Positions 14,435 through 36,479 of a stretch of 43,694 bases of DNA are shown one piece after another. The translations under genes were made by a program, and so were the position numbers. The notes under the pieces are model-generated. The model was not told the origin of the DNA, did not search any database, and was given only the letters and a program-made list of their open reading frames with translations. Source of the DNA: a bacterium (lineage in GTDB: Bacteria; UBP6; UBA1177); assembly GCA_017961325.1 (NCBI GenBank), contig JAGCXM010000038.1:1-43694 (forward strand). The letters run 5' to 3'. How positions within the stretch are numbered: the stretch's first letter is position 1; every line of letters starts with the position of its first letter.

Positions 14435-14448
14435 CACAAGGAGGTTTG

Positions 14449-16659
14449 ATGCGCATACTCATAGTAATTCACGGATATCCGCCGTTTTATATGGCAGGTT
14501 CCGAGGTCTATACCTACAATCTTGCAAGAGAACTTGCGAAAACCAACGATGTCTTTGTGTTTCACCGAATCGAAGACAAAACGAAGCCGCTTTATTGGCA
14601 CAAAGATACGAGAGAAAGCGGCGTGAGCATCCGTTATATCAACAATTACGAGCCGGAAAACGCCACATTCTATGACAAATATCTCAATCCCGTGATTGAT
14701 GACGCATTCCGCGATTATGTAAAACTTATTCAACCTGATGTTGTCCATGTCGGCCACTTGTCGCATCTTTCAACACAGATCCCGATTATTGCAAAAATGG
14801 AATTCGGACTTCCGGTCCTGTTCACGATTCATGATTTCTGGATGTTCTGTCACCGAGGTCAGCTGATAAATCCGAAAGACTGGCAGATCTGCCCTCTGCC
14901 GAATATCAGCCAATGCACTGAATGCGCCGCTTTTCACTACAAAAAACCCGATTTCAGCACAGAACTTATAAAAGAGCGCGACGAGCATATCCGCAATGTT
15001 CTTGACTGCATCGATGTATTCTTCGCTCCTTCGCATACTTTGGAAAAATTCTTTATTGATATGGGTGTCAAACCGGAAAAAATCTTTTATTCAAAATACG
15101 GGTTCAACACTTCCAATATTCAAAAACATCCGAAATCACTGCACGAAAAGATCACTTTCGGTTTCACGGGGCGCATTATCTATACAAAAGGGGTCCATCT
15201 TCTGTGCGAAGCGTTCAGCAAAGTACAGGGCAATGCCGGACTTGTGATCTGGGGCGATACAGAGAGTGAATACGGTGAAAATTTGGTCAAAAAATATTCC
15301 TGCGAAAACATCGAATTCAAGGGGAAATATCACAATGACAAATTGCAGGAAGTCCTTGATTCTTTTGATGTTCTCGTCTGCCCTTCGATATGGCTTGAAA
15401 ATGCGCCGCTCGTAATTCAGGAAGCCCAGAGCGCAGAAATTCCTGTTCTTGTGAGCGACAAAGGAGGAATGGCGGAACTGGTGCATGACGGAATCGACGG
15501 TTTTACATTCAAACTCGGAGATACGGATGATCTGCGCTCCAAAATGCAGGATATTGTTGATGATCCGCAGAAGCTGCTTAACTTGAAAACTCCGATAGAA
15601 AAAGTCCGTTCCATGAAAGATGATGCCGCTTTCTGCATTCAGAAATACTCGGAACTGTCAAAGAAAAAAGTTACTTACCCCCACCGCCCGGCACCGTGGA
15701 GAGTGACTTTCATCACGAATCCCGACAAATGCAACCTTCACTGCAAAATGTGTGACACCTTTTCTGCCGACAACCGCATCAGGCTGAAAAAATCCAGTCG
15801 TCCGGAGATGGATTTCGCCGTTATCGAAAAGACCGTGAATCTTCTTGCCCCGCACGGACTCAAGGAAATAATCCCCTCAACAATGGGTGAGCCGCTTTTG
15901 TATTCGAACTTCGAAGATCTGATAGAGCTGTGCCGCAGGAACAACATAAAAATGAACCTCACTACAAACGGAACATTCCCGCAAAAAGGCGTGGATTTCT
16001 GGGCTCCGAAACTTTTGGAGGTGATTTCCGATGTAAAATTCAGCATCAACGGGATAAATCCTGAAATAAACGAAAGTATCATGTGCGGAATCGACACCGG
16101 AAAGCAGCTGCGGAACATTGAATATTATCTGAATCTCCGCAAGAAACTCGGCAAGAACAGCACCGTCACGCTTCAGTGCACCTTCATGAAGTCCAACCTT
16201 TACGAACTGAAGAACATCATTCTCTGGGGAGTCGAACACGGTGTAGACAGGATCAAAGGGCATCATTTGTGGAAAACGGCTGATTCTTTAGAAAGCGAAA
16301 TGCTCAGGACTAAGGAAAACGCTACGCTTTGGAACACTGTCTGCGAAGAATGCCGCCAAACCGCCGAAAGCAGAATCAAACTGGAGAATTTCACGCCAGT
16401 TGATTTGAACGAACCTGCCCTTGATGCAAGCGACACAATATGTCAGTTTCTCGGAAAAGAACTATGGATAGAATACGACGGCTCTTACCAGATCTGCTGC
16501 TGCCCGGACGAAGTACGCAGAGAGTTCGGAGACTTCGGCAACGTCGCTGAACTTTCCCCTCTTGAAATGTGGAACGGCGGGAAATACCGTGACTTTATCG
16601 CAAAATGGGGAGAAAGCGACAACTGCAAAAAATGCAATATGAGGAGGAAAAAATTATGA
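14449..16659 (+). CDS. Fusion of a GT4 glycosyltransferase and a radical SAM/SPASM enzyme
   Basis: 736 residues. Residues 1 to about 400 form a GT-B family 4 glycosyltransferase: MRILIVIHGYPPFYMAGSE at the N-terminus, GFTGRIIYTKGVHLLCEAF, and the donor-binding block SIWLENAPLVIQEAQSAEIPVLVSDKGGMAELV. Residues about 415-736 form a radical SAM enzyme with CNLHCKMC (Cys428, 432, 435) binding the [4Fe-4S]/SAM centre, a GEPLLYSN motif, and a C-terminal SPASM-like Cys set (CQFLGK, CCC, CKKCNMRRK) for auxiliary clusters. A single protein joining the two is unusual. The ATG at 14449 follows AAGGAGGTTTG. It likely modifies and transfers a sugar or a peptide-linked glycan together with the downstream carbamoyltransferase and epimerase; the exact substrate is unknown. 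Confidence 0.85.
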   Translation: MRILIVIHGYPPFYMAGSEVYTYNLARELAKTNDVFVFHRIEDKTKPLYWHKDTRESGVSIRYINNYEPENATFYDKYLNPVIDDAFRDYVKLIQPDVVHVGHLSHLSTQIPIIAKMEFGLPVLFTIHDFWMFCHRGQLINPKDWQICPLPNISQCTECAAFHYKKPDFSTELIKERDEHIRNVLDCIDVFFAPSHTLEKFFIDMGVKPEKIFYSKYGFNTSNIQKHPKSLHEKITFGFTGRIIYTKGVHLLCEAFSKVQGNAGLVIWGDTESEYGENLVKKYSCENIEFKGKYHNDKLQEVLDSFDVLVCPSIWLENAPLVIQEAQSAEIPVLVSDKGGMAELVHDGIDGFTFKLGDTDDLRSKMQDIVDDPQKLLNLKTPIEKVRSMKDDAAFCIQKYSELSKKKVTYPHRPAPWRVTFITNPDKCNLHCKMCDTFSADNRIRLKKSSRPEMDFAVIEKTVNLLAPHGLKEIIPSTMGEPLLYSNFEDLIELCRRNNIKMNLTTNGTFPQKGVDFWAPKLLEVISDVKFSINGINPEINESIMCGIDTGKQLRNIEYYLNLRKKLGKNSTVTLQCTFMKSNLYELKNIILWGVEHGVDRIKGHHLWKTADSLESEMLRTKENATLWNTVCEECRQTAESRIKLENFTPVDLNEPALDASDTICQFLGKELWIEYDGSYQICCCPDEVRREFGDFGNVAELSPLEMWNGGKYRDFIAKWGESDNCKKCNMRRKKL

Positions 16660-23599: not shown

Positions 23600-24460
23600 A
23601 TGGAAAAAACGAATTACGTTTTCAACTGGCATGTTACTTCAAAATGCAACTACCACTGCCGCTTCTGCTATTCAGAGTGGGAGAAGATGCCGGAAATCTG
23701 GGATGACCCGCAGAAAGTCGCTGCACTTCTGAAAAATCTTTCAGAGAGCAGACTTTTCGAAAAAGGCAAAACCCGCCTGAACATTGCAGGCGGCGAAGCG
23801 ACTATTAACATGAAAAAACTTGCACCGGTCATTGAAACAGCCTGGAATCAAGGTTTTGTGCTGTCTATCATCACCAACGGTTCTTATCTTGAAAATCTGA
23901 TGCCCTTCATCGGCAAATTCTCAATGGTCGGCATATCGGTGGATTCGGCCAGCGATGAAAACAACGTCAAAATAGGCCGCTGCACCGCTAAAGGGAAAGT
24001 AATGACATTTTCAGAACTTTGCAAAAAGGTCGATGCGCTCAAAGCTACAAATCCGGAACTGATTATCAAAATCAATTCAGTGGTCAATGTTCTCAACTGG
24101 AACGAGAATCTGCTCAGTCAGCTTAAGTCTGTCGGCGCACAGAAGTATAAAATCCTGCGCCAGATGCCTTTCAACGGCGATAAAGGCATAAGTGATGAGC
24201 AGTGGCGGCATTTCATCGAACTTAACCGTCACCCCGGACTAAATACCGTTATTGAAGACAATGAAGATATGACTCACAGTTACCTGATGATAGCCCCTGA
24301 CGGCAGATTCTTCCAGAACGGCGGCACAGAATACGCCTACAGTTCGCATTCTCTCTGGGAAAAACCTGCCGACGAACTGCTTGGCGAAATGGATTTTGAT
24401 GAAGAAAAGTTCAAAAGCAGATACAACCTGTCTGACGAAAAGAAAAATTCAAATTTTTAA
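23600..24460 (+). CDS. Prokaryotic viperin (antiviral radical SAM ddhNTP synthase)
   Basis: 286 residues. Radical SAM cluster site CNYHCRFC (Cys16, 20, 23) in NWHVTSKCNYHCRFCYSEW, which mirrors the CNYKCGFC of animal viperin. Further viperin-specific blocks are aligned in order: LNIAGGEATIN, SIITNGSYL, ISVDSASDENNVKIGR, FKINSVVN-type IIKINSVVNVLNWNENL, KYKILRQMPFNGDKG and DMTHSYLMIAPDGRFFQNGG. Known prokaryotic viperins convert CTP, GTP or UTP to 3'-deoxy-3',4'-didehydro nucleotides that stop viral RNA synthesis. No SPASM domain is present and length fits. The start follows AAGGAGAGAGG. The usual neighbouring nucleotide kinase is absent; instead a 37-residue peptide and an ankyrin protein follow. 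The main alternative is a MoaA-like enzyme, which the viperin blocks disfavour. Confidence 0.87.
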   Translation: MEKTNYVFNWHVTSKCNYHCRFCYSEWEKMPEIWDDPQKVAALLKNLSESRLFEKGKTRLNIAGGEATINMKKLAPVIETAWNQGFVLSIITNGSYLENLMPFIGKFSMVGISVDSASDENNVKIGRCTAKGKVMTFSELCKKVDALKATNPELIIKINSVVNVLNWNENLLSQLKSVGAQKYKILRQMPFNGDKGISDEQWRHFIELNRHPGLNTVIEDNEDMTHSYLMIAPDGRFFQNGGTEYAYSSHSLWEKPADELLGEMDFDEEKFKSRYNLSDEKKNSNF

Positions 24461-24471
24461 TGGAGGAATAT

Positions 24472-24585
24472 ATGTTGAATCCGGTGAAAATGAAAAGGGA
24501 ACTCAACAGTCTGTTTGCAGATGCAGCTATAATGAGGAAATCAATTCAAAACGGCGTCTTTGGCGCAGGAGTAAACCATGAGTGA
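24472..24585 (+). CDS. 37-residue peptide between viperin and the ankyrin protein
   Basis: A short open frame with a strong ribosome site (TGGAGGAATAT) 11 bases after viperin; its last eight bases overlap the start of the next gene. Product starts MLNPVKMKRELNSLFADAAI and ends FGAGVNHE. No membrane segment. The tight spacing, own ribosome site and overlap suggest it is translated; it could be a real small protein or a translational coupler for the large gene. No homologue is recognised. Confidence 0.55.
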   Translation: MLNPVKMKRELNSLFADAAIMRKSIQNGVFGAGVNHE

Positions 24586-27259
24586 AGACAACAAAACAAA
24601 GTTTGGAAACATGCCGCTCGGTATGATCAACAAAATGCTGGTTTCTTTTATCGGGGAAGATGCTTTTCTGGACTACTGTGAAAAGTATCATAAAGATTGG
24701 AAACTTGACTGGCAGTCAAGAGAAGCTTTCAGAAAACATCTTGACAGACTGTTTGAAGAAAAAGAGAGTTCCTATCGTGATTTGAACCCGCATTACGAAC
24801 AGTCGGTATACAGGATTGCCTTTAAAATTTTGGATGACTTTTGCAATAAGTATGGTTTGCCTCGGTATATTGCGGATACGATACTGGATTTTTACGATCT
24901 GTTGCGTCTCCGGCTCCGGCTTTCAGGAACCGAATATCCTGTTTTTGAAACTTATTACACACTTGATTCCGTAATTCGTGGATTTTTGCATATCTTTTTT
25001 GAAATTGATGAAATAGGCACAAACAATGATGCCGACTTTTCATATCGTGATGCAGAAACAAAATACAACATGGTTTTTGACGAATTGGGTAAAAAATTTA
25101 AGGACAAAAATGGGGAAAAGTCCAGTCTGGAAAAATTTTATACCAAATTGTCGAACTGGTATTCAGGTAAAATTAAAGGGCAAGTCCTCTCCGATCATTT
25201 CAAGAAAATCATTATCAACAACTGTAAAAAAGGTCAAAATCCAGCCAAATGGAAAGATATGAAAACCATTCTCGACTTCTGTAAAGAAAAAGGAAAAGAC
25301 TTGGAGGTGGCGCATTTAATTGAAGCTTATCTGACAGCAAATGTGAAGAATTTTATAGTGGAAATTCAGGAAGAAAATTGGAAGGAAATAGGATTCTGCT
25401 TCGAATATATAGAAAAAAATGTGTCCAACAAAACAGGCCTTTTGTATGAGTTTCATCAAAGGCTTTTTAATCCTTTGGGAGACAAATCCGAACCTATAGA
25501 TTCGGCTCTTTTGGAGATTCTTATAAAGCATGTTTACCTTCAGGATGAAAAGAGAGCGGAGGATTTAATCTCGAATATAAAAGAAATTGCTCCGGAAGCC
25601 TCCGATTTTTACTGCAACTGGCTTCGCGCCTATATTGCGGTAGCAAAATGCGAATTTGAGAATGCTAAAAAACTCTACAATGAAGCGTTCGGCAACATTC
25701 ACTTTGCAGGAATATGGGCCGAAGTTTTTTTGAAACAGGCGTTTGTTCTTTCCGTTTATTGTGATTTAAATCCGGATAGCGTCCGTAAGGTGATAGATCC
25801 TGAAAAGGATGCCGAAAATCCTTTGCCCCAGGATGGAAAAAGGTTTTGGGAATACGGCTACGCCATTGAAGTTTTTGATGAACCAGCTAAAAAGATACCT
25901 CCCAAACTTGTATATTGGAGAGAAAATTTTTTCGCTGAGTTTCCACAGGAAATGTTTTTCTCTGGCATAAAAATCGCTCCCGACAGAACAAAACCGACTC
26001 CAGCCGGGAATTTTGTCTTTTGTGCGGGAAACATTAAAGAAAAAATAAAAGAGTATTATAATAGTCTCTCAGCATTTAAAAAAGGGAGTATAAACAAACG
26101 TCTGAAAATCTTTGATGGGGACGCGCAAAGGAGGCCTCCGCTTTCTGCGGCTATATACCTCTTTACCAACTCTTCAAGAGAAAAGTTTACTGATTTGGAG
26201 GAAAAATTTCTTGACTTGATAGAAAAGTGGCTCGGACTCTCCGACCCGGAAACAGCGATCAAAGAGTTGGAATTCAATACTATCTCTGAATTAGGCGAAA
26301 CACCCTTGAATATGGCAACTATGGCATACAAGGATTTTTGTGCAAAGAACAGTGACCCTGAATCTCCTGTGAAGAAAAGACTGAGGAAAATAGTGACCCA
26401 CATTTTAGGCAAAACCGATAAAAATCACTTAAGGAAGGTCACCGAAAGAAAACGGATTCATCCTTTGCAGAATGTCATAGACTCATGCGATATTGAGTTA
26501 GTCAAAGAATTTGTCGAAAAATTTCTTGAAGTCAAGCTCGATATTGACAGCATTAGATTTACAACCGGCAAAGTATCTCCGGTATATTACACAATTGGCA
26601 GAATTTTCAACCTTCAACATCCCAAAGCAATATCTCATCCTGAAAATACGAATTGGAAATATGCGGATATGCCGAGAATAAATGCTGAAGACAAAAAAAG
26701 GAACTTTGACGACAAAATGAACTACCTCACTCTGGAAGCACAAGTCTTGCTTAACGAGTATGCCATAAAAGATGATTTGGGCGATGAAAGCACATACATG
26801 GAACAGATAAAAAAGCTGAAGGAAATATGCCTCTATCTTATAGATCATACGAAAGATCAGGACGCATATAAATTCAGCAATAACCGTGGAGCAGAAAGGA
26901 CAAGCCTTACTTTTGCAGCCGAAACCGATGATGCTGATATTTGCCGCGCATTGCTTAAGCACGGGGCTGATCCAAATATTTTTCTTGAAACAGAATGGGG
27001 AAATGAAATCCCGAATACATTTCTGCATAGATGTATTCAGCATGAAGCATGGAATGTGCTTGAAATGTTTTTGACGGAATTTAAAGAGAAAGCCGCAGAA
27101 ACAATCAAAAAATACAATAACTCGGGCAAATATGCGCCTTTTGTCTTTTTCTTTGAAAAAAACAAAGAAAAAAGGACGGGATTTATGGAAAAATTTATAA
27201 AACTGTTCGAATCATGCGGCGTTGATCTCACTATTATTCCAACCGATAAATTTAAATAA
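24578..27259 (+). CDS. Large helical protein with C-terminal ankyrin repeats
   Basis: 893 residues, AT-rich codons. Residues 1 to about 600 are mostly predicted helix without a recognised catalytic motif; about 310-420 looks like a TPR/solenoid region (LRAYIAVAKCEFENAKKLYNEAF). Ankyrin-type repeats are clear at the end: TSLTFAAETDDADICRALLKHGADPN (about 773-798) followed by FLHRCIQHEAWNVLEMFLTEF, with a weaker one at about 628 (HPLQNVIDSCDIELVKEFVEKFL). No signal peptide. It overlaps the 37-residue frame by eight bases and is the last gene of the viperin module. It might be a sensor, partner or separate effector; nothing in it proves which. No frameshift is visible. Confidence 0.7.
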   Translation: MSEDNKTKFGNMPLGMINKMLVSFIGEDAFLDYCEKYHKDWKLDWQSREAFRKHLDRLFEEKESSYRDLNPHYEQSVYRIAFKILDDFCNKYGLPRYIADTILDFYDLLRLRLRLSGTEYPVFETYYTLDSVIRGFLHIFFEIDEIGTNNDADFSYRDAETKYNMVFDELGKKFKDKNGEKSSLEKFYTKLSNWYSGKIKGQVLSDHFKKIIINNCKKGQNPAKWKDMKTILDFCKEKGKDLEVAHLIEAYLTANVKNFIVEIQEENWKEIGFCFEYIEKNVSNKTGLLYEFHQRLFNPLGDKSEPIDSALLEILIKHVYLQDEKRAEDLISNIKEIAPEASDFYCNWLRAYIAVAKCEFENAKKLYNEAFGNIHFAGIWAEVFLKQAFVLSVYCDLNPDSVRKVIDPEKDAENPLPQDGKRFWEYGYAIEVFDEPAKKIPPKLVYWRENFFAEFPQEMFFSGIKIAPDRTKPTPAGNFVFCAGNIKEKIKEYYNSLSAFKKGSINKRLKIFDGDAQRRPPLSAAIYLFTNSSREKFTDLEEKFLDLIEKWLGLSDPETAIKELEFNTISELGETPLNMATMAYKDFCAKNSDPESPVKKRLRKIVTHILGKTDKNHLRKVTERKRIHPLQNVIDSCDIELVKEFVEKFLEVKLDIDSIRFTTGKVSPVYYTIGRIFNLQHPKAISHPENTNWKYADMPRINAEDKKRNFDDKMNYLTLEAQVLLNEYAIKDDLGDESTYMEQIKKLKEICLYLIDHTKDQDAYKFSNNRGAERTSLTFAAETDDADICRALLKHGADPNIFLETEWGNEIPNTFLHRCIQHEAWNVLEMFLTEFKEKAAETIKKYNNSGKYAPFVFFFEKNKEKRTGFMEKFIKLFESCGVDLTIIPTDKFK

Positions 27260-27850: not shown

Positions 27851-27880
27851 GTCAACTCGAGTTGTTTTCCGACGCTTATT
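27851..27880 (+). promoter_or_regulatory. Repeated element E4 (putative alternative-sigma promoter of the Mokosh-like pair)
   Basis: GTCAACTC (27851-27858), 14 bases, CGCTTATT (27873-27880), then GGTGTGAG. It is the only copy with a 14-base spacer. The helicase start codon is separated from it by 42 bases. Confidence 0.72.
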
Positions 27881-27922
27881 ATGGTGTGAGTTGAAGGTCA
27901 ATTGTAACATGGAGGGTTTAAA

Positions 27923-30900
27923 ATGACTAAAATCTTGGGAAAATACGAGGTCATCAGTGAAGAATCAAAATCTCTCAAAATCGCGCGATACAACGATTGC
28001 GATTACCGCATAGAGATCGTGGCCAAGACCACGGCAAGCGGGAAATACTCTAATATCGCGAAAAACATCAACTTGATCTCGCACCAGAACATCAGCAATC
28101 TTAAAATCGAAGAAGATGACAGAAACTTCTATTTTGTTGACAGGGATTTCGGCGAAGGATATTCCGAATTGAAACCTGATTGGTTCGGTCAGAATTATGA
28201 GTCTCTCATAAAATGCTACCAGCAGATCGTTGATGCGGTTGACTATATTCACCAGAAAGGCTTCTATCACGGGAATATCAATCCTAAAAACATACTGATC
28301 GACAGGAACGATAACGCCTATCTGCTCGATTTCGGCAGATGCTATATTTATGCGATTCTGAGCGGTTCGCCCGACACACGCTACTATGCACCGGAACAAA
28401 TCGAGAAAAAAGAATGCTGCAAAGAAAGCGATGTATATTCGCTCGGACTTTGCATGCTGAAACTTTTATTGGAATCCCGCTTTGAGGAATTTTCTTTCGA
28501 GGATGAGTATTCGGATTTTGATTCTCTGGACGATATTTATAAATATATCGTATCTCAGGACGAGAAACTCGACCCGATCAATGCGGAATTATTTCAGCTC
28601 ATAAAAGCTATGCTGGCAAAACATCCGGAAGAACGCATGAAACTGTTCAATATCCGAAAGAATCTTGCCGATTTGTTAAGACTGGTTGCTCCCTGCAGGA
28701 CTTTTGCCATTCAGATATCCGGAAACGAACTTAAAAAATGGAGAGAAAACCACAATAGCGAGATGTATACTGAAAAGCATGAAATTCAGAGCAAAATCAA
28801 TGATTTCTACGCTTTTTGGGAATTCGGGAAAGACAAAAACGGACGCGATGAAGTAAAAATCGCAATAGGCGATTTGATATTCTGCTGTTCAGCAAAAGAA
28901 GAAAATCACGAATTTTTCTGCTTTGCCATTCTTGACAATCCGCCAAAAACCGAACTCCTGCAGAAATACGGACTCAAAACAAATGATCAATTCAAGATAA
29001 CAGGGTCAGGCGACTCTGTTTGGGGTTATGATGATGCAGGAAGTGTGATTGCCGAATTAAGGGAACGGTATGAACAGAAAAAGCGCGAAAACGAACGTTA
29101 TGAAACCGATAAAAAGAGCATCGATACCGAGGAAAAACTGCTTGAGGCCGAGAAAAAAACTATAGAAGAAAAGAAAAACACGAAAAAAGTGATTTTGCAG
29201 GAAATCAACTCCGGCCAGGATACTTTGACTCTGGAATACGCAGAGGATAATGACGAAGAAGACGAAGACGATGCAATAAACATCTTGGAAATCGACCCCC
29301 GAAAGGATTTTAAGCAGAAACAAAGAGTTATCCTCAAGGAAAAATTAGACAGCAAAGACGGACTCGAAGGCACTGTCGCATCCTCTAAATCGGGTTTTTC
29401 CGTGACCATGAAACTGGAGAAATATGAAGTTCTGAAATGCAAAGACTCTCTGCGGAAAGGCGGCGAATATTTTTTGAGTTATGATTATCAGGTAGAGGAG
29501 ATCATCTGGAGCAAAAGGAAAACGGCTCTTGACATGTTGCAAAACGGCAATGTCTATATCCCGAATTTCCTTAGAAAAATAAACCGTCCCACAGAATTCA
29601 TCAAAAACGATCTGGTTGATGTTGCCAAGTTCTACAATGAGCAGCTTGACGAGAATCAGAAAATGGCTGTGCGAAAGGCGCTGTCGCTGGATAACGAGTG
29701 CGAGATAATGGTTTTGCAAGGCCCTCCCGGAACAGGAAAAACTGTAACAATAACCGAGATCGTGACCCAGCTTTTAAAAACGCGGCCTCACGAGAGAATA
29801 CTGGTGGCGTCACAGAGCAATCAGGCTGTGGACAATGTTCTGGAAAAAATATGCGGGATCGAAGACAAAATCCTCAGAATCGGAAACGATCCCAGCAAAA
29901 TCAGCAAGACAGCACAAAATTATCTGCCCGGCAAAGTCCTCGATAAAATAATCAAAGAAAACATCAGGCGCATTGACGAGAACCCGATTGCGCACAACAA
30001 TGAGATCAAGAATAAAATGCAGGGGTGGCAGAAAGACTTCAGAGAGAAACTGCAGCACATAACATCAAGTATGGGAAACAATCCTGTTGAAAATAAAGAC
30101 ACCGAACTGGCAACCCTTTTCATTCGGAATATAAGGCTGATTTTCGGCACTCTGATAGGCATTTCGTCATGGAAAAATTTCAGAGACATCGTTTTTGACA
30201 CCGTGATCGTCGATGAAGCCGGCAGAGCCACTCTTAGCGAACTCCTTGTTCCCTGTATCAAAGCAAAAAAACTGATCCTGGTCGGTGATCATAAACAACT
30301 GGCTCCCGTTATCGACGATGATGTAATAGAAAAAATCAAAGACAAAGACGAAGCGAAAACTTCATTCTTCCAGAGGCTGTTTGAACGCATAGAAAAAGCA
30401 GGCAGGAAACATCTTATCCACATGCTGGAATATAATTACCGTGCGGAACAAAGTATCTGCGACCTATACAGCATTCCTTTTTACGACGGCAGACTCAAAA
30501 CAACAGACGAAGTCAATAAAAGGAAACAGCACAATCTCCGCTCTTTCAGCTCAAGCGTTGTCTGGTATGATACCGGGAAACTGCATAACAAGGAAGATGA
30601 ACAGAAAGACACTGGAAAAATCAACAGATGCAACGCCGAATGCATTGAACGGATACTGCATAGAATAAACGACGACATGGCGCAGGGCGGACAAAATTAC
30701 GACATCGGAATCATCACGCCTTACAAAGCCCAGACGGAACTGCTCCGCAGCAAATTGTCTATAAAGAGAAACTTTCCTGACAGCAGGATCGACATCGGAA
30801 CGGTTGACAGCTTCCAGGGAAGCGACAGGGATATCATCATCTATGACTGCGTCCGTTCCGGAAAAGCAAACCAAAAAGCGAAGATAGACTTCATCGCGGA

Positions 30901-31075
30901 TGAGAAACGGTTAAATGTCTCGCTTTCAAGGGCAAAACTGCTTTTGATCATCGTTGGCGATATGAATTTTCTGCATGAAGCCCAGGTTTCCGACAAAGAC
31001 AACCCGTTTATAAGCATTATTGAACATATTGCACAAAACAGAGACCGATACGAAATAATAGATGCGGGAGAATAA
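27923..31075 (+). CDS. Kinase-like / SF1 helicase fusion, Mokosh type I MkoA-like
   Basis: 1050 residues. Residues 1 to about 265 have a Hanks-type protein kinase fold: YHGNINPKNILID (His116...Asn123) and LLDFGR (Asp136), then YYAPEQ and SDVYSLGLCMLKLL. The catalytic Asp of 'HRD' is Asn118 here and the glycine-rich loop is weak, so this may be a pseudokinase. A charged coiled coil runs about 375-430. The C-terminal half is a UPF1/COG1112-type SF1B helicase: Walker A GPPGTGKT (600-607), Walker B DEAG (764-767), GDHKQLAP, VDSFQGSDRDIIIYD and NVSLSRAK. The following PLD gene completes the make-up of the Mokosh type I anti-phage system, as I recall its description. The ribosome site is TGGAGGG. 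Confidence 0.82.
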   Translation: MTKILGKYEVISEESKSLKIARYNDCDYRIEIVAKTTASGKYSNIAKNINLISHQNISNLKIEEDDRNFYFVDRDFGEGYSELKPDWFGQNYESLIKCYQQIVDAVDYIHQKGFYHGNINPKNILIDRNDNAYLLDFGRCYIYAILSGSPDTRYYAPEQIEKKECCKESDVYSLGLCMLKLLLESRFEEFSFEDEYSDFDSLDDIYKYIVSQDEKLDPINAELFQLIKAMLAKHPEERMKLFNIRKNLADLLRLVAPCRTFAIQISGNELKKWRENHNSEMYTEKHEIQSKINDFYAFWEFGKDKNGRDEVKIAIGDLIFCCSAKEENHEFFCFAILDNPPKTELLQKYGLKTNDQFKITGSGDSVWGYDDAGSVIAELRERYEQKKRENERYETDKKSIDTEEKLLEAEKKTIEEKKNTKKVILQEINSGQDTLTLEYAEDNDEEDEDDAINILEIDPRKDFKQKQRVILKEKLDSKDGLEGTVASSKSGFSVTMKLEKYEVLKCKDSLRKGGEYFLSYDYQVEEIIWSKRKTALDMLQNGNVYIPNFLRKINRPTEFIKNDLVDVAKFYNEQLDENQKMAVRKALSLDNECEIMVLQGPPGTGKTVTITEIVTQLLKTRPHERILVASQSNQAVDNVLEKICGIEDKILRIGNDPSKISKTAQNYLPGKVLDKIIKENIRRIDENPIAHNNEIKNKMQGWQKDFREKLQHITSSMGNNPVENKDTELATLFIRNIRLIFGTLIGISSWKNFRDIVFDTVIVDEAGRATLSELLVPCIKAKKLILVGDHKQLAPVIDDDVIEKIKDKDEAKTSFFQRLFERIEKAGRKHLIHMLEYNYRAEQSICDLYSIPFYDGRLKTTDEVNKRKQHNLRSFSSSVVWYDTGKLHNKEDEQKDTGKINRCNAECIERILHRINDDMAQGGQNYDIGIITPYKAQTELLRSKLSIKRNFPDSRIDIGTVDSFQGSDRDIIIYDCVRSGKANQKAKIDFIADEKRLNVSLSRAKLLLIIVGDMNFLHEAQVSDKDNPFISIIEHIAQNRDRYEIIDAGE

Positions 31076-31076
31076 A

Positions 31077-32417
31077 ATGACAGAAGCGAGAACAAGCGAA
31101 GCGAAGAAAACGAACTTGATCCCTGATCTGAAGCTGATCGCTCACAAATACAGCGATTTTTATCCTGGTTTTATCAGGTATGATGTCCGGGAAATAGACT
31201 ACCCTGTTTATAAAGCGAAGGTAAAGTATTCGCTCACAAAAGCGCGTGAAGTTCATCCTGTCATCGTATCTGTGATGAAAATCATCCAGTTCCTAGAAAC
31301 TGTCAATAACGGGGTTTCTTATCTTCGTGAAATCACGCAGTTGGATGAAGAGATCCTGGACAGTATCCAGGCGGAGATAACGACAAAGGGTTATCTGAAA
31401 CAGGACGAGCTGAAACTTTCCAAAAACGGCAAGGAAATTTTGGAAAAAGAAAAAGAACTGGTTACAGAAAACGCTTCCTGCTATCTAAATTTTGACGGAA
31501 TATTCGGAACAGTTATGTCTGATTGCGGAAGACTTGATCAGAATGACAAAAAAAGGACTAATGCGATCGAGTTCAAACCCTATGTGAAATCGCGTCCGAG
31601 AATAGAACATTTGGATGACGACTTTTCCGAAAACAAAACTCTCAGACAACTTCTGATTGAAAATCTTCAGGACAATGATTTCGATATAACTGATATTTTG
31701 CAAATAGACACAAACAAGTATTTCAAAAGATATATCTGTTTGTTTTTCAAGGATGCCGAGAATAACGAAAAGTTTTTGGTCCTCAATCAGGAGCATGAAA
31801 TAGACTCGGAAGCTACGGACCTTTTCGATCGTCTCGTGACAGAGCAGAAATTCGACTATGACAATGTCTCTCACAAGAGCCAGGAATTGTTGGAGGAAAA
31901 TGTTAATAAATTTAACGGCACAACTCGCGAAACAATCATCGAGAGAACAAAACCTCTGGAATCACCTGCTATCACCGACGGGAAAACGATAGAGGTCGAT
32001 GAACACAAAAGATACTTCATTTATATTCTTGAAAATGCAAAAAGAAGCATCTGCATCCAATCTCCGTGGATCAACTGGCGGACACTTCAAATCTATAAAG
32101 GGTATATAGAAAATGCCGTTAAAAGAGGTGTGCGCGTTACAGTCAAGTATGGAATGAAACCGCGAAACAGGTTCGACAAGATCGGCATCGACAAAGAATC
32201 GCAGAAATTTTTTGACTCGCTCGGCAAAGACAACTTCCGCCTGATAAAAACTGACGACCACTCCAAGATCGTTATCTGCGACGATGATTTCATGATAATG
32301 GGAAGTTTCAACTGGTTGAGTTTCGGCGGCGGTGACGAGAAAGACGCAAGAGGCGAAACATCAACGATCAACATGAATAAGGTAGAGATAAGGAAACAAA
32401 TCGAGAAATTCAACTAA
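31077..32417 (+). CDS. PLD-family nuclease, Mokosh type I MkoB-like
   Basis: 446 residues; the ATG at 31077 lies one base after the previous stop TAA, with GGGAG as ribosome site. The C-terminal ~120 residues hold a phospholipase D-type active site: DDHSKIVICDDDFMIMGSFNW (H-x-K-x4-D followed by G-S-x-N-W), preceded by the typical SICIQSPWINWRTLQIYKGYIENAVKRGVRVTVKYG. Only one HKD motif is visible, so it should work as a dimer, as PLD nucleases of the Nuc type do. Residues 1 to about 280 are unrecognised. The pairing with a helicase/kinase fusion is the main reason for the Mokosh call; cleavage of nucleic acid is inferred. Confidence 0.8.
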   Translation: MTEARTSEAKKTNLIPDLKLIAHKYSDFYPGFIRYDVREIDYPVYKAKVKYSLTKAREVHPVIVSVMKIIQFLETVNNGVSYLREITQLDEEILDSIQAEITTKGYLKQDELKLSKNGKEILEKEKELVTENASCYLNFDGIFGTVMSDCGRLDQNDKKRTNAIEFKPYVKSRPRIEHLDDDFSENKTLRQLLIENLQDNDFDITDILQIDTNKYFKRYICLFFKDAENNEKFLVLNQEHEIDSEATDLFDRLVTEQKFDYDNVSHKSQELLEENVNKFNGTTRETIIERTKPLESPAITDGKTIEVDEHKRYFIYILENAKRSICIQSPWINWRTLQIYKGYIENAVKRGVRVTVKYGMKPRNRFDKIGIDKESQKFFDSLGKDNFRLIKTDDHSKIVICDDDFMIMGSFNWLSFGGGDEKDARGETSTINMNKVEIRKQIEKFN

Positions 32418-34986: not shown

Positions 34987-35607
34987 ATGAAAAAAATCGT
35001 ATTTGTGACACTCCCGCTTAAAGGCAATTTGGAAAAACGCATCTACCCGGTTGACGGCAACTCTTTGCTTGAGATCAAGGAGCCGATCTGTTTTGCAGCA
35101 ACAGCTGCTCTGGTCAGCAAACTTAAAGCTGATGACGAAGTAAAGATCATACTTATCGAGACAGAAGGCGGCGAGAATGCCGGGGACGAAAACGCAAAAC
35201 TTTTCAAAGAAGAACTTAACCGTTTTAACACTGTCGGTGCAAAAATAAGTTACGAAACGCTTTCCAACACTTTCGATCCTTCAAAAACAAACTTCCAGTT
35301 CACATTTAAAACCCTGATAAAAAAACTGGAAGAAGGAGCTGAAATTTATGCCGATATCACTTTCGGACCGAAACCTCTGGCATTCCTTCTTTTCTCTGTT
35401 TTCCAGTTTGCCGAAAAATTTTTCAACAGCTCTATCGGCAATATCGTCTACTCCAAAGTAGAATTTAAAGCAGGCAAAATAGCAGACGGATCTGAAATGA
35501 TTTACGATGTTACCCCGCTCTATCTGATGAGCAGCATTACCAACTTGATCGAAGCTCCAAGCAGTGAACGCGCAATCCAGACGGTTGAAACATTGTTTGA
35601 GGAGTAG
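34987..35607 (+). CDS. CARF-like protein of the TM1812/Csx2 type (N-terminal sensor domain only)
   Basis: 206 residues. The layout is Rossmann-like: beta strand KIVFVTLPL, the helix LEIKEPICFAATAALVSKL, strand EVKIILIETEGGENAGDENAKLFKEEL, then EIYADITFGPKPLAFLLFSVFQFAEKF and NIVYSKVEFKAGKIADGSEMIYDVTPLYLMSSI. The ADITFG-PKPL block resembles the 'DxTHG-frs-lP' signature of TM1812-type CARF proteins, with Phe in place of the His, and the Y-x-V-T-P-L ending is also typical. CARF domains bind cyclic oligoadenylates or related messengers. No HEPN or other effector domain is attached. It is coupled (two-base gap) to the sigma-like gene. No CRISPR array or cas gene is in the window. Confidence 0.58.
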   Translation: MKKIVFVTLPLKGNLEKRIYPVDGNSLLEIKEPICFAATAALVSKLKADDEVKIILIETEGGENAGDENAKLFKEELNRFNTVGAKISYETLSNTFDPSKTNFQFTFKTLIKKLEEGAEIYADITFGPKPLAFLLFSVFQFAEKFFNSSIGNIVYSKVEFKAGKIADGSEMIYDVTPLYLMSSITNLIEAPSSERAIQTVETLFEE

Positions 35608-35609
35608 GC

Positions 35610-36479
35610 ATGGAACAGATATTTGAAAAAATAAACGAACTTTTTGATGAATATCTGAAAACTCTCAATCTTGCAAACACCGAAACCGCCAAACTGGCTA
35701 TAGAAGAGAAAATTATTCTCACTGTATGGAAAGCCAATAAAAATTACAGGGAATATTCTGTTGAAGTCATTGAAAAAGTTAAGGAATCTCTTAAATACTT
35801 TCCAGATTCCAAGGCAAGAAAAAATGGCGGCGAATTTAGTAAATATCTCTTTAACTCCTTGCAAAACTCGATTGGTTCAACCAAAGGTGAAGAATCTTTG
35901 GAACAAAAAACCGGATTATCAATATCTGATGAAGATCAAAAACTGATACGCAAAATAAACAAATGCATCAAAAGGTTACTTAAAATGGACCCTCTTTTAG
36001 ACAACGATGCAATCATTGGGAAAGTAGCTGCAATACTAAAAAAGGACGAATCTGAAATAACAGACCTTTTAAACTTGGCAAAAACTACTGCTCTCGGACT
36101 TGAAATGCAAAATCATGAAGACAACGAGAGTGTTATGATTGAGGAAGTCTTTGATATTGTTGGCAAAAACCCGATCGAAGACTGGTTTGCTTCGCTTGAG
36201 GCGCGGGAAAAAGCTCTTTTCTTAATAGATTCGGAATGGAACAAGAAACCCGATCAGATGCTTTCAGAACTTCTTACAATCAAAGTCTTAGATGCGAACC
36301 TGAATGTTGAAAATATGGAAAACTACACCTTTCTGAACAAAGAAATTTACGATAACTTTCGAAAAGATCCTGAACGCAAACTGCCGGAAGAATCCGAAAT
36401 CGCTGAAAAATACGGATTGACAAAATCTGCGGCGAGCAAAAAAATTTCCCGGTTTTTGAACCTTTTAAAAAATTTTTAA
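35610..36479 (+). CDS. Sigma-70-like transcription factor
   Basis: 289 residues, start two bases after the CARF-like stop (GAGGAGTAGGCATG). Residues about 60-95 (YFPDSKARKNGGEFSKYLFNSLQNSIGS) resemble sigma region 2 ('FDPSKG-x-F-xx-YL-xx-IxNxI'). About 125-165 (LLDNDAIIGKVAAILKKDESEITDLLNLAKTTALGLE) reads like the helix-turn-helix of region 3. The last 30 residues (LPEESEIAEKYGLTKSAASKKISRFLNLLKNF) form a region 4-like helix-turn-helix for the -35 element. Similarity is at the pattern level only; a non-sigma DNA-binding regulator is the alternative. It is the natural candidate to read the E elements, one of which drives its own operon. Confidence 0.58.
   Translation: MEQIFEKINELFDEYLKTLNLANTETAKLAIEEKIILTVWKANKNYREYSVEVIEKVKESLKYFPDSKARKNGGEFSKYLFNSLQNSIGSTKGEESLEQKTGLSISDEDQKLIRKINKCIKRLLKMDPLLDNDAIIGKVAAILKKDESEITDLLNLAKTTALGLEMQNHEDNESVMIEEVFDIVGKNPIEDWFASLEAREKALFLIDSEWNKKPDQMLSELLTIKVLDANLNVENMENYTFLNKEIYDNFRKDPERKLPEESEIAEKYGLTKSAASKKISRFLNLLKNF

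What the first reader, a model, noticed from the sequence alone, without database searches (positions are those of the whole stretch)
27923..32417. Mokosh type I-like helicase-kinase plus PLD pair, with a degenerate kinase catalytic loop
Domain make-up (kinase-like fold + SF1 helicase of the COG1112 type, followed by a PLD nuclease) fits the published Mokosh type I system as I remember it. HGNINPKN replaces HRDxKxxN, so the catalytic Asp is an Asn, although DFG is kept. The kinase domain may have become a sensor or scaffold.
Basis: partly seen in the sequence, partly recalled or inferred. Interest (0 to 1): 0.66.

Follow-up and report, generated by a model that had tools for sequence, protein, structure and literature searches.

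The report
Mokosh phage defence with dead kinase
This is a two-gene bacterial anti-phage system of a known kind (Mokosh type I) in which the protein-kinase part has lost nearly all the residues needed for catalysis, yet has been kept and conserved in a lineage spread over three bacterial phyla, so the kinase part probably works there as a sensor or switch and not as an enzyme.

Summary
27923-31075 encodes a 1050-aa protein (N-terminal kinase fold, linker, SF1B UPF1/IGHMBP2-type helicase), and 31077-32417 encodes a single-HKD PLD nuclease. PADLOC matches are MkoA 5.6e-201 over nearly the full profile and MkoB 8.8e-59. It is a Mokosh type I pair by domain make-up, profiles and gene order.

HRD is HGN (Asp to Asn118), the catalytic-loop Lys is Asn120, the beta3 Lys is replaced and the alpha-C Glu is missing. 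Only the two metal-site residues (catalytic-loop Asn123, DFG Asp136) remain. Other kinases of the genus keep HRD.

This is not local decay. Fourteen MkoAs (4 from this UBP6 genus, 2 Spirochaetota, 8 Helicobacter/Campylobacter-type) share a broken catalytic site. In a tree from the helicase part alone they form one side of a single branch (88/96), next to Arcobacter MkoAs with every catalytic residue. The dead domain is under purifying selection (dN/dS 0.11-0.20) with its own conserved residues, while all 13 MkoBs checked keep the HKD motif.

Best reading: a pseudokinase subclade of Mokosh type I, the domain acting non-catalytically on helicase-nuclease activation. It is a new variant of a known kind. 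No activity was tested.

The parts
27923..31075 (+). mkoA: pseudokinase - linker - SF1B (UPF1/IGHMBP2/SETX-type) helicase, 1050 aa
   Evidence: PADLOC MkoA 5.6e-201; Pfam Pkinase, AAA_11, AAA_12; model matches SETX/IGHMBP2/UPF1 and, for the N-terminus, kinases such as 1fpu
27923..28687 (+). kinase-fold domain (about residues 1-255), catalytically degenerate
   Evidence: beta1-beta5, alpha-C, alpha-E pattern in the model (moderate confidence); homology to PknB/CIPK kinases
28007..28027 (+). beta3 segment RIEIVAK: position of the catalytic VAIK Lys is Glu31 or Ile32
   Evidence: alignments
28268..28291 (+). catalytic loop HGNINPKN (HRD Asp -> Asn118, Lys -> Asn120, Asn123 kept)
28328..28336 (+). 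DFG motif (residues 136-138), kept
   Evidence: coordinates follow from residue numbering
29633..31042 (+). helicase core with Walker A GPPGTGKT (29720-29743) and Walker B DEAG (30212-30223)
31077..32417 (+). mkoB: N-terminal winged-helix-like region plus C-terminal PLD nuclease (HKD at 32259-32282), 446 aa
   Evidence: PADLOC MkoB 8.8e-59; PLDc_2; model matches NucT, Nuc, Zucchini; start site

Best explanation
The pair is a Mokosh type I anti-phage system whose N-terminal kinase domain is a pseudokinase. Shown here: the gene pair, domains, profile matches, loss of four catalytic features, shared ancestry of the loss, purifying selection, intact helicase and nuclease motifs. Inferred: MkoA senses an abnormal nucleic acid, probably phage RNA or an RNA-containing intermediate, through its UPF1/IGHMBP2-like helicase core. 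MkoB is recruited and its PLD domain, working as a dimer of single HKD motifs, cuts that nucleic acid. The dead kinase fold acts without phosphotransfer, as a ligand- or protein-binding regulator that holds the complex off or on, possibly still binding a nucleotide through Asn123 and the DFG Asp.
For: PADLOC MkoA/MkoB profiles nearly full length. MkoB directly follows MkoA in every complete locus read of this clade. beta3 Lys, alpha-C Glu, HRD Asp and loop Lys are absent in window and siblings, and in most clade members. The 14 degenerate MkoAs are one side of a branch in a tree built without the kinase domain, 88/96, 89% of bootstrap trees. dN/dS of the domain among siblings is 0.11-0.20, only slightly above the helicase. 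Clade-specific invariant positions exist, such as K3, I4, K7, S43, C98, M178. The HKD..GSFNW motif is kept in 13 of 13 MkoBs. Lone kinases of the same genus keep HRDLKPEN.
Against: Catalytic inactivity is inferred from sequence; some kinases lacking canonical residues still phosphorylate or catalyse other transfers. The sensor/switch role is not observed, and dN/dS cannot tell a regulatory from a purely structural role. The RNA substrate is taken from the published Mokosh description and from helicase kinship (the closest PLD fold matches also include the DNA nucleases NucT and Nuc). Structure models are of moderate confidence (pLDDT 65.6 and 67.1).
Confidence: 0.7

Rival explanations
1. The domain is an unconventional but active transferase: it still binds Mg-nucleotide through Asn123 and the DFG Asp and performs weak phosphorylation, AMPylation or glutamylation, as some former 'pseudokinases' do.
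For: Both metal-site residues are kept in nearly all clade members; HG[N/T][I/L]NPxN is itself conserved, suggesting the pocket is used.
Against: beta3 Lys, alpha-C Glu and HRD Asp are all gone; known unconventional kinases usually keep the Lys or replace it elsewhere (own knowledge). Lys35 is widely present but also in MkoAs with the normal Lys, so it is not a clear substitute.
Confidence: 0.12
2. The domain is decaying after loss of need for the kinase and has no function beyond folding support.
For: Campylobacterota G671 has lost the loop altogether and G694 has lost the HRD His and the DFG Asp; sibling G010 carries an MkoA-like protein without a recognisable catalytic loop.
Against: dN/dS 0.11-0.20 and non-synonymous divergence like the helicase; conserved clade-specific residues across phyla.
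Confidence: 0.12
3. Not an anti-phage system in this organism but a housekeeping RNA/DNA processing helicase-nuclease pair.
For: UPF1/SEN1-type helicases and PLD nucleases also work in RNA turnover (own knowledge); no phage assay exists here.
Against: Patchy within the genus, 4 genomes with full-length MkoA among 15; sits in a variable slot beside a viperin gene and between syntenic flanks; strong Mokosh profile matches.
Confidence: 0.06

Closest known systems
Mokosh type I (MkoA + MkoB; PADLOC PDLC03920/PDLC03922; described by Millman et al. 2022, summarised in PMC11672841)
   Same: Separate helicase and PLD genes in one operon, kinase-fold N-terminus on the helicase protein, COG1112/UPF1-like helicase, near full-length profile matches
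   Different: Kinase catalytic residues (Lys, Glu, HRD Asp, loop Lys) are lost, whereas MkoAs of Aliarcobacter, Parabeggiatoa, cyanobacteria and actinobacteria keep them
Mokosh type II (MkoC, PDLC03924)
   Same: Helicase and PLD homology (MkoC hits 6.9e-41 and 8.5e-20)
   Different: Type II is one fused protein without the kinase domain (PMC11672841); here two genes and a kinase fold
UPF1 / IGHMBP2 / SETX-SEN1 helicases
   Same: Same SF1B helicase core by sequence and model
   Different: No kinase domain, no PLD partner; eukaryotic RNA quality-control roles
Single-HKD PLD nucleases NucT, Nuc, Zucchini/MitoPLD
   Same: C-terminal PLD fold of MkoB
   Different: MkoB has a long N-terminal region with a winged-helix-like part and is coupled to MkoA

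Membership tests
Mokosh type I | Helicase of the COG1112/SF1B type in MkoA | tested here: met
   AAA_11/AAA_12, IGHMBP2/UPF1 matches, MkoA profile 5.6e-201
Mokosh type I | Serine-threonine kinase domain on the helicase protein | tested here: met
   Kinase fold present, Pkinase 6.5e-22. The fold is met; catalytic residues are not
Mokosh type I | PLD nuclease encoded by a separate adjacent gene (MkoB) | tested here: met
   MkoB profile 8.8e-59, starts 1 nt after the mkoA stop codon, HKD intact
Mokosh type I | Anti-phage activity | not testable with these tools
   No assay; only context (viperin neighbour, variable slot)
Mokosh type I | Direct homology to the experimentally tested E. coli MkoA | not tested
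   No E. coli MkoA sequence was retrieved (one search gave no match with a gammaproteobacterial probe); only PADLOC profiles were used
Active Ser/Thr protein kinase | beta3 Lys, alpha-C Glu, HRD Asp, DFG Asp | tested here: not met
   Only DFG Asp (and catalytic-loop Asn) kept
Mokosh type II | Helicase and PLD fused in one protein (MkoC) | tested here: not met
   Two separate ORFs

The most novel reading that the evidence does not exclude
A distinct, old and horizontally spread subtype of Mokosh in which the kinase has become a non-enzymatic, ligand- or phage-protein-sensing regulator of a helicase-nuclease complex: a bacterial immune pseudokinase that can be studied beside active-kinase relatives.
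Probability: 0.45. Interest if true: 0.62.

Novelty: new variant of a known kind. Interest (0 to 1): 0.44.

Why it matters
What the kinase domain does in Mokosh type I was not explained in any paper I could read. A natural clade that keeps the domain but has lost its catalytic residues, with nearest relatives that keep them all, separates 'kinase activity is needed' from 'the kinase fold is needed', and makes the question directly testable by comparing the two forms. No paper in the searched library mentions Mokosh together with 'pseudokinase'.

Tried and rejected
Viral contigs: no relatives. Phage records: only short helicase or kinase pieces. E. coli collection with a gammaproteobacterial MkoA-like gene at DNA level: no match, so the tested E. 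coli protein was not compared. The genome-contig scan used a pattern that contains the odd loop itself and is therefore biased; the tally rests mainly on PADLOC-profile searches of the groups to which the Treponema, Helicobacter, Algoriphagus, Parabeggiatoa and Lachnospiraceae hits belong, which do not select on the loop. CARF-HTH downstream as a third Mokosh component: rejected as unproven, because it also stands without MkoAB in siblings and is absent beside Treponema and Campylobacterota MkoAB. A type III CRISPR partner for CARF: no Csm1 in the genome. The original Millman paper is not held.

Full report
Observation. The first (27923-31075, 1050 aa) has a Pkinase match (residues 52-244, 6.5e-22) followed by AAA_11 and AAA_12 helicase halves. 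The second has a PLDc_2 domain. Its start is better placed at 31077: siblings start there, and TAA of mkoA, one base, then ATG with a GGGAG stretch upstream is read directly in the sequence. The loop HGNINPKN lies at residues 116-123 and DFG at 136-138.

Is it Mokosh? PADLOC gives MkoA 5.6e-201 over profile 6-1104 of 1112, MkoB 8.8e-59, and weaker MkoC matches to both. Published descriptions give type I as a helicase protein with a Ser/Thr kinase domain plus a separate PLD nuclease, and type II as one fused helicase-PLD protein (PMC11672841). The pair meets the type I make-up. I could not compare it directly with the tested E. coli protein.

How broken is the kinase? Against MkoAs with intact kinases, the window protein has Glu31/Ile32 at the beta3 Lys, no alpha-C Glu, Asn118 for the HRD Asp, Asn120 for the loop Lys; Asn123 and Asp136 stay (pairwise alignment to the kinase CIPK24 also puts the VAIK Lys at Glu31). 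Other protein kinases of the same genus keep HRDLKPEN. The fold is kept: the model has the expected strand-helix order, and the N-terminus finds kinases in the PDB, though model confidence is moderate (pLDDT 65.6).

Is it general? Profile-guided searches of several phyla, which do not select on the loop, plus a sequence-pattern scan (biased) and plasmid records gave 30 MkoA-like proteins to align. Fourteen have a broken HRD/loop and belong together: four of this UBP6 genus (record titles name UBP6 and rumen or gut bacteria), a Treponema and another Spirochaetota genome, and eight Helicobacter/Campylobacter-type genomes. Ten have Asn, two Thr, one has lost the loop, and one keeps the Asp but has lost the His and the DFG Asp. 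Intact K/E/D/N/D sets are in Aliarcobacter/Arcobacter, Parabeggiatoa, one Bacillota-type genome, cyanobacteria, actinobacteria and Aminobacter. Bacteroidota and one Spirochaetota form keep Lys, Asp, Asn and DFG but not the alpha-C Glu. Two distant MkoA-like proteins (G1255, G1654) are degenerate in another way (the 'Gamma' and 'Bacil' labels are of the searched groups).

One loss, long ago. A maximum-likelihood tree from the helicase part only puts the 14 on one side of a single branch (88 bootstrap / 96 SH-aLRT; 89% of bootstrap trees), next to the Arcobacter pair with all residues. Support is good but not decisive. The window protein's nearest kin after its own genus is a Treponema (65-68% identity), which suggests transfer between phyla.

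Kept for a reason. Among the four UBP6 genomes the dead domain has dN/dS 0.11-0.20 (helicase 0.06-0.12) and similar non-synonymous divergence. Across the clade it has its own near-invariant residues that differ from intact MkoAs. MkoB follows in every complete locus, and its HxKxxxxD...GSFNW motif is intact in 13 of 13. So the effector stays under strict constraint while kinase catalysis is dispensable. In two rhizobial plasmids with an intact or near-intact kinase, mkoAB is followed by a PP2C phosphatase gene, as one would expect if phosphorylation matters there; two cases only.

Setting. In four UBP6 genomes mkoAB occupies one slot, between a syntenic upstream stretch (glycosyltransferase-radical SAM, carbamoyltransferase, Lcl-domain gene) and CARF-HTH genes. 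A viperin gene and an ankyrin-repeat gene stand between the Lcl gene and mkoA only in the window genome. Sibling G010 has in that slot an MkoA-like protein with no recognisable kinase loop, and a MkoB-like protein without the PLD half. This is a defence hotspot, not a fixed core locus.

Mechanism. Shown: anatomy, loss, conservation. Inferred: the helicase senses abnormal nucleic acid, MkoB cuts, the pseudokinase regulates. The published view is that Mokosh degrades viral transcripts (PMC11291487). Fold matches of MkoB include NucT and Nuc (DNA nucleases) as well as Zucchini, so the substrate is open.

Verdict. The finding is real and somewhat stronger than described: a pseudokinase subclade of Mokosh type I, a new variant of a known kind.

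Noticed in passing
window 23600-24460 (+): Prokaryotic viperin (pVip 2.1e-80; NCBIfam viperin_w_prok above cut-off), inserted with an ankyrin-repeat protein (24578-27259) only in the window genome; siblings have the Lcl-domain gene directly upstream of mkoA.
   Followed up: partly
window 27851-32417: Mosaic mkoAB: about 0.9-0.97 DNA identity to sibling G008 at both ends (kinase N-lobe, PLD end), 0.60-0.82 in between, while two siblings are about 0.9 alike throughout. Suggests homologous exchange inside the operon.
   Followed up: partly
window 34987-36479 (+): CARF-only protein (PADLOC CARF2 3.1e-73) followed by a fast-diverging HTH-like protein (29-50% identity among siblings), with or without mkoAB nearby and no Csm1 in the genome: a CARF pair apparently without type III CRISPR (other Cas10 types not searched).
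   Followed up: partly
L262 9069-12912 (sibling G010): In the mkoAB slot, an MkoA-like helicase without a kinase loop and a MkoB-like protein that lacks the PLD half.
   Followed up: partly
L217 and L220 (Agrobacterium, Aminobacter plasmids): mkoAB with intact or near-intact kinase is followed by a PP2C phosphatase gene, a possible third component of kinase-active Mokosh.
   Followed up: no
window 14446-16659 (+): Fusion of a GT4 glycosyltransferase and a radical SAM/SPASM domain next to a histidine phosphatase and a carbamoyltransferase; looks like a surface-sugar or small-molecule cluster.
   Followed up: no
L210 (G1255) and L214 (G1654): Distant MkoA-like proteins whose kinase domain is degenerate in another way (DFG lost), suggesting that loss of kinase catalysis happened more than once.
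   Followed up: no
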